Shown here one piece after another: positions 26,105 to 26,356 of a stretch of DNA of 37,269 nucleotides (position 1 is the first letter of the stretch; each line of letters opens with the position of its first letter). Under the pieces are notes generated by a model. That model saw only the letters and a list, made by a program, of their open reading frames with translations. It searched no databases and was not told the DNA's origin. A program made the position numbers and the translations under genes. The stretch spans positions 1 to 37,269 of the forward strand of contig JAJZXX010000064.1 in assembly GCA_021806205.1 (NCBI GenBank), read 5' to 3'. The DNA comes from Bacillota bacterium. GTDB taxonomy: Bacteria; Bacillota; Sulfobacillia; Sulfobacillales; Sulfobacillaceae.

Positions 26105-26356
26105 TCAAAATCCCAACGCTCTTTCCAAGTCGGTCTTCTTGTAGCCGATAATCACTTGGCGTTGGTCATTTTTTTCGATAACCGTGGTGGGTGTTCCCAT
26201 GGATCCGAGTTTCGCGAGGTCGTTTCCATAGTTGGGATTGTCTCCAAGATCCCGCTGTTCAAAGGGGATGCCTTTTTCCCGCAGCCACGCTGCTTCTTGA
26301 CGGCAAGCACTTCACCCGGGTGCCGTATACACAATCACGTTGGTAGTTTGATCCAT
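26105..26356 (-). CDS. glutaredoxin/NrdH-like protein with in-frame UGA at the redox-active site: candidate selenoprotein (UxxC)
   Basis: Minus-strand translation MDQTTNVIVYTAPG[UGA]SACRQEAAWLREKGIPFEQRDLGDNPNYGNDLAKLGSMGTPTTVIEKNDQRQVIIGYKKTDLERALGF*; RBS GGGAGGG 8 nt before ATG; UGA at 26312-26314. Confidence 0.75.
26281..26293 (-). promoter_or_regulatory. bSECIS-like hairpin core downstream of the in-frame UGA
   Basis: Minus strand GCAGC-GTG-GCTGC, apical loop 23 nt after UGA, with symmetric outer TGCC…GGCA pairing. Confidence 0.5.

What the first reader, a model, noticed from the sequence alone, without database searches (positions are those of the whole stretch)
26105..26356. Unannotated candidate selenoprotein: glutaredoxin-like gene with UGA in place of the first active-site cysteine
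Seen in sequence: on the minus strand an 83-codon frame (RBS GGGAGGG, ATG at 26356, terminal TGA at 26105-26107) has only one internal stop, a TGA (26312-26314, codon 15), exactly where the first Cys of a glutaredoxin/NrdH CxxC belongs: VIVYTAPG-[UGA]-SAC-RQEAAWLREKGIPFEQRDL. The rest of the fold is intact, including the cis-Pro segment GTPTTVIE and a C-terminal VIIGYKKTDLERAL. The supplied ORF track missed the gene and shows only unrelated ORFs here. Established knowledge: Sec replacing a redox Cys (UxxC) is the classic signature of thioredoxin-fold selenoproteins, and bacterial Sec-glutaredoxins are known. Inference: the TGA is decoded as Sec. A chance nonsense mutation hitting precisely this codon in an otherwise intact gene with RBS and terminator is less likely, but not excluded.
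Basis: partly seen in the sequence, partly recalled or inferred. Interest (0 to 1): 0.92.

Follow-up and report, generated by a model that had tools for sequence, protein, structure and literature searches.

The report
Selenocysteine-containing glutaredoxin-like gene in Sulfobacillus
A small redox-protein gene that automatic gene finders miss is almost certainly real: its internal UGA 'stop' codon is read as the amino acid selenocysteine, making this a new member of the already known selenium-containing glutaredoxins, in an acid-loving bacterium.

Summary
Window 26105-26356 (minus) encodes an 83-residue glutaredoxin-fold protein with one in-frame TGA at codon 15. The genome (a Sulfobacillus relative, fragmented draft) holds tRNA-Sec(UCA), selA, selB and selD, and its selD itself carries an in-frame TGA (SGUGCK). 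All four same-genus orthologues, including that of isolate S. harzensis, keep the TGA at the same codon in conserved gene order; dN/dS after the TGA is about 0.05-0.28 where measurable. Across the family, more than 50 homologous genes have TGA at this column and about 13 have TGC or TGT; no other codon was seen. A hairpin (loop GUG, 23 nt after the UGA) covaries in the Sec genes far beyond a synonymous-codon null and is weaker in the Cys genes: a bacterial SECIS element. Sequencing error, pseudogene and UGA=Trp are rejected. The closest solved relative, by sequence and predicted fold, is glutaredoxin-1 of Clostridium oremlandii, itself a native selenoprotein, so the kind is known. New here are a Sulfobacillaceae subfamily ('AWL' motif, no NCBIfam model above cut-off for the window protein), three copies in this genome, and repeated Sec/Cys switches. 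Selenocysteine in the protein is inferred, not measured.

The parts
26105..26356 (-). Sec-glutaredoxin-like gene, 83 residues with U15 (UxxC: G-U-S-A-C), ATG start, TGA end
   Evidence: orthologues
26312..26314 (-). in-frame TGA read as selenocysteine (codon 15)
   Evidence: aligned with TGC/TGT in Cys homologues and with TGA in more than 50 others
26281..26293 (-). apical hairpin of the predicted bacterial SECIS: GCAGC-GUG-GCUGC, loop 23 nt after the UGA (the 8-pair frame of the family spans 26278-26296)
   Evidence: covariation and synonymous-codon null
26364..26370 (-). ribosome binding site GGGAGGG, 7 nt before the ATG
   Evidence: sequence
26022..26053 (-). 13-bp terminator hairpin followed by CTTTT
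26099..26527 (+). antisense ORF of 142 aa, judged spurious (mirror of the selenoprotein gene)
24910..26013 (+). conserved neighbour: acyltransferase PF01757, convergent
26502..27200 (-). conserved neighbour: 232-aa protein without a Pfam match (membrane protein by reading), upstream, same strand
31222..36614 (+). nrdR and a ribonucleotide reductase interrupted by inteins, 5 kb away; both also near the orthologue in G025, nrdR near that in G027

Best explanation
The gene encodes a small thioredoxin-fold selenoprotein. SelB, loaded with Sec-tRNA-Sec(UCA), binds the hairpin that follows the UGA and inserts selenocysteine at position 15. The selenolate of the U-S-A-C motif attacks a disulfide or other oxidised substrate, and Cys18 resolves the mixed selenosulfide. 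Reduction is probably by a thioredoxin-reductase or low-molecular-weight-thiol route, as for NrdH/Grx-like redoxins. Shown: gene, machinery, TGA/Cys exchange, covarying hairpin, selection. Inferred: Sec in the protein, catalysis, reductant and substrate.
For: Sec machinery in the same assembly: tRNA-Sec 72.2 bits (cut-off 47), anticodon UCA, G73; selB 357 bits, selA 555 bits, selD 358 bits, selD itself reading SGUGCK. Family: 33 of 34 genomes have homologues, most with exactly one TGA inside, always at the active-site codon, otherwise TGC/TGT. Hairpin: the 27 distinct TGA sequences average 6.67 contiguous pairs against 3.49 (sd 0.24) under synonymous recoding, 0 of 5000; 6 Cys sequences 4.33; the window's own clade of 5 averages 5.0 against 3.11, 5 of 5000. 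17 cells with two-sided changes against 5.7 shuffled; covariation 0.275 against 0.121, 0 of 500; slid frames at most 0.093. dN/dS after the TGA 0.05-0.28 where dS is finite. Gene order conserved. Model pLDDT 82.9 with all Trx-fold elements; top Foldseek hit 7c12 and top PDB sequence hit 7c10, both C. oremlandii Grx1, a native selenoprotein (PMC7642778).
Against: No protein or selenium measurement. The window's own hairpin has only 5 pairs, and its free energy alone is ordinary (z = -0.61). The assembly is a draft of 254 contigs, 86.8% complete and 4.8% contaminated, and the sel genes lie on other contigs. One family genome (G003) shows a TGA copy but no selA and no tRNA-Sec above cut-off; a stray contig or a gap may explain it, untested.
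Confidence: 0.96

Rival explanations
1. Pseudogene: a nonsense mutation in a once Cys-containing redoxin gene.
For: One in-frame stop in one gene is the usual sign of a broken gene.
Against: The same TGA is kept in orthologues at near-saturated synonymous divergence; dN/dS after it is 0.05-0.28; the hairpin is under selection; full Sec machinery is present.
Confidence: 0.01
2. Sequencing or assembly error at 26312-26314.
For: The genome is a draft of 254 contigs.
Against: The same codon is TGA in independent genomes, among them the S. harzensis isolate contig.
Confidence: 0.005
3. UGA is read as another amino acid: Trp by a code change, or Cys by a tRNA-Sec-like tRNA-Cys, at least when selenium is scarce.
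For: selC*-type tRNA-Cys genes occur in the family, and Cys insertion at Sec UGA is known elsewhere (Mukai et al. 2017, as cited in PMC9437257).
Against: Replacements are only Cys, never Trp. The selC* tRNAs seen here read UGC/UGU (anticodon GCA), and none was found in this genome (a weak negative). TGA also ends this gene. A canonical tRNA-Sec(UCA) is present.
Confidence: 0.02

Closest known systems
Glutaredoxin-1 of Clostridium oremlandii (cGrx1; PDB 7c10, 7c12, 7c13), a native Sec-glutaredoxin
   Same: Same fold and length; catalytic Sec first in UxxC; C-terminal GF/GY-xxx-(K/D)-(L/I) stretch; best hit by sequence and by fold
   Different: About 28% identity in the structural alignment; U-P-x-C there against G-U-S-A-C here; the window family has the E-x-x-A-W-L helix; cGrx1 is proposed to reduce a Sec-MsrA, but the one MsrA found in this genome has no in-frame stop
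UXX-star selenoprotein families (NF041211, NF041212)
   Same: Small glutaredoxin-like proteins, often with Sec; 36.8 bits
   Different: Below the curated cut-offs of 100 and 66 bits
YruB-family and NrdH glutaredoxin-like proteins (TIGR02196, TIGR02194)
   Same: TIGR02196 is the best NCBIfam match (51.8 bits), TIGR02194 gives 31.9 bits; both over nearly the whole length
   Different: Below cut-offs 88.55 and 85.75; as I know them, these are mainly Cys proteins
Bacillus cereus BC3987 thioredoxin-like protein (3zij)
   Same: Second-best PDB sequence match, TM-score 0.76-0.78
   Different: CPPC, no Sec in the solved chain

Membership tests
Bacterial UGA-decoded selenoprotein | tRNA-Sec(UCA), SelA, SelB, SelD in the genome | tested here: met
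Bacterial UGA-decoded selenoprotein | in-frame UGA aligned with Cys in homologues | tested here: met
   only TGA, TGC or TGT at the column
Bacterial UGA-decoded selenoprotein | SECIS hairpin just after the UGA with a small apical loop holding G (criterion in PMC1088965) | tested here: met
   loop GUG, 23 nt after UGA, covarying stem; only 5 pairs in the window's own clade
Bacterial UGA-decoded selenoprotein | selenium in the protein | not testable with these tools
   needs 75Se or mass spectrometry
Glutaredoxin domain PF00462 | score above the Pfam gathering cut-off | tested here: met
   34.1 against 22.9 bits
Sec-glutaredoxin (PF00462, UxxC; Table 1 of PMC13188914) | PF00462 domain with UxxC | tested here: met
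   U15-S-A-C18
Classical glutathione-dependent glutaredoxin | C-terminal GG glutathione-binding motif (my own knowledge) | tested here: not met
   IIGYKKTDLERAL instead; by reading the alignment
Classical glutathione-dependent glutaredoxin | reduced by glutathione | not testable with these tools
   enzyme assay needed
UXX-star families (NF041211, NF041212, NF047338) | score above the curated cut-off | tested here: not met
   36.8, 36.8 and 21.6 bits against 100, 66 and 97
NrdH (TIGR02194) / YruB (TIGR02196) | score above the curated cut-off | tested here: not met
   31.9 against 85.75; 51.8 against 88.55

The most novel reading that the evidence does not exclude
The 'AWL' proteins form a Sulfobacillaceae-specific selenoredoxin family with a function of its own (three Sec paralogues in this genome, a partner other than glutathione, perhaps ribonucleotide reductase or metal/sulfur stress), in which the RNA hairpin dictates part of the protein sequence (mostly AWLS in Sec genes outside the window's genus, variable after AWL in Cys genes).
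Probability: 0.35. Interest if true: 0.45.

Novelty: new member of a known kind. Interest (0 to 1): 0.4.

Why it matters
It adds a selenoprotein gene, well supported by comparison, that standard gene calling misses; a word-based search of 5.8 billion predicted proteins found no relative of the window protein. It shows that Sulfobacillaceae carry several small Sec-redoxins, beyond the formate dehydrogenase and PrxU already reported for Sulfobacillus (PMC4378227, PMC7409299). The clade offers a natural experiment: closely related Sec and Cys versions, with the SECIS hairpin kept in one and decaying in the other.

Tried and rejected
Protein database search with the window protein: nothing, most likely because gene callers stop at the TGA; the Cys relative L027 found 7 relatives, all Cys. 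Rfam on the region: nothing credible. Promoter scan: nothing; the consensus terminator scan did not list the terminator hairpin, but folding showed it. Hairpin energy of the window alone is uninformative; only comparison shows it. A first DNA alignment with wrong offsets was replaced. tRNA-Sec-like tRNA-Cys genes looked at first like extra tRNA-Sec; they have anticodon GCA and U73 and fit the known selC* class. Idea that Sec-MsrA is the partner as in C. oremlandii: the MsrA found here has no in-frame stop. Papers by Mukai et al. on selC*/allo-tRNA are not held. (a 20-residue piece against NCBIfam) was uninformative.

Full report
What is there. The minus strand of window 26105-26356 reads as an 83-residue protein with one internal stop, a TGA at 26312-26314 (codon 15), an ATG at 26356, GGGAGGG seven bases before it, and a terminal TGA. 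Folding finds a 13-bp terminator hairpin at 26053-26022 followed by CTTTT. With the TGA read as Cys, the protein matches Pfam Glutaredoxin above its cut-off over residues 7-61. The only ORF of 100 aa or more listed at the place is an antisense one.

Can the organism read UGA as selenocysteine? The window's assembly (3.77 Mb, 254 contigs, 86.8% complete, 4.8% contaminated) holds one tRNA-Sec at 72 bits with anticodon UCA, selB, selA and selD. selD itself contains an in-frame TGA in SGUGCK, the position known to be Sec in selenoprotein SelD (my own knowledge). selA is found above cut-off in 30 of 34 genomes of the family.

Is the TGA conserved? Of 34 family genomes, 33 hold homologues. I re-read every matched locus and took the codon aligned with the window's TGA: TGA in more than 50 genes, TGC or TGT in about 13, nothing else; four short or partial matches could not be scored. 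Four same-genus orthologues (L023-L026, 58-69% identical over the alignment) all have TGA; L023 and the isolate contig of Sulfobacillus harzensis DSM 109850 (L052) carry the same gene, so a read error is excluded. The order VIT1 - AMP-binding - acyltransferase - Sec gene - 232-aa protein - CoA-binding - YajQ - PMT is kept in the genus, with an insertion of about 5 kb in G027. After the TGA, dN/dS is 0.05-0.28 where dS is not saturated.

Is there a SECIS? In the family marked by the motif AWL, a hairpin with loop GUG lies with its loop 23 nt after the UGA. The 27 distinct TGA sequences have on average 6.67 contiguous pairs; recoding the same proteins with synonymous codons gives 3.49, sd 0.24, and never the observed value in 5000 trials. 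Six Cys sequences average 4.33, somewhat above their own null (15 of 5000), as expected of recent or partial decay. The window's own clade (5 sequences) has exactly five pairs in each, 5.0 against 3.11 expected (5 of 5000). Two-sided, pair-preserving changes occur in 17 cells against 5.7 in shuffles; the covariation score exceeds all 500 shuffles and all slid frames. Related sequences can exceed such shuffles without structure, so the synonymous-codon null and the Sec/Cys contrast carry more weight. One pair occurs as AU, CG, UG and UA. The residue after AWL is mostly Ser in Sec genes outside the window's genus and variable in Cys genes, so the RNA appears to constrain the protein; this last point is by reading.

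Evolution. On a tree of 63 homologues the Sec/Cys label changes 7 times by parsimony, and at least 2 changes are forced by well-supported branches; the alignment is short, so the number is rough. Both genomes that lack selA at high completeness (G003, G004) carry Cys forms of the second, TTPT-type redoxin and a Cys AWL form. G003 also has one TGA copy (L057), which I could not explain. The window's genome has three AWL copies, all with TGA (C213, C23, C194), and one TTPT copy with TGA (C143).

What it works like. AlphaFold gives the thioredoxin fold at pLDDT 82.9. By sequence profile and by fold the nearest solved protein is glutaredoxin-1 of Clostridium oremlandii, a native selenoprotein with UPxC that is proposed to reduce a Sec-MsrA (PMC7642778). 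The window protein lacks the classical C-terminal GG glutathione motif (motif from my own knowledge), so glutathione dependence is doubtful. NrdR and a ribonucleotide reductase lie 5 kb away and stay near in at least one relative; a role as its reductant is a guess only. Reductant and substrate stay open.

Known or new. Sec-glutaredoxins (PF00462, UxxC) are listed among experimentally verified prokaryotic selenoproteins (PMC13188914) and were seen in the Sargasso Sea data (PMC1088965). For the window protein all NCBIfam scores are below the curated cut-offs. The best matches among 400 sampled genomes of the phylum outside the family do not have the AWL motif in the loci read, so the subfamily looks confined to this family as far as sampled. 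I file it as a new member of a known kind.

Noticed in passing
L093-L100, L102, L103, L037:1385-1471, L039:1202-1288, L042:1858-1946: Many family genomes carry a tRNA-Sec-shaped tRNA with Cys anticodon GCA and U73, fitting the known selC* tRNA-Cys class. In G017-G020 it lies about 20-210 bp downstream of the AWL redoxin gene on the same strand, and in G020 that gene has TGC instead of TGA. Whether this pairing has a purpose is open. None was found in the window's genome.
   Followed up: partly
window 31719-36614: Ribonucleotide reductase large chain (TSCPD type) of 1631 aa interrupted by what look like two inteins (Hint, intein-splicing and LAGLIDADG domains).
   Followed up: no
L057 (G003:C120): TGA-containing AWL gene in a 96%-complete genome without selA or tRNA-Sec above cut-off: contamination, gap or a stranded selenoprotein gene.
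   Followed up: no
L055 (G000:C143), L061-L090: A second small redoxin family with TTPTUPHC, Sec in most genomes and Cys in several, one copy in the window's genome.
   Followed up: partly
L051 (G024:C94), L054 (G000:C194), L053 (G000:C23): Further Sec-redoxin paralogues, including a divergent YHAPGUVSC type in G024.
   Followed up: no
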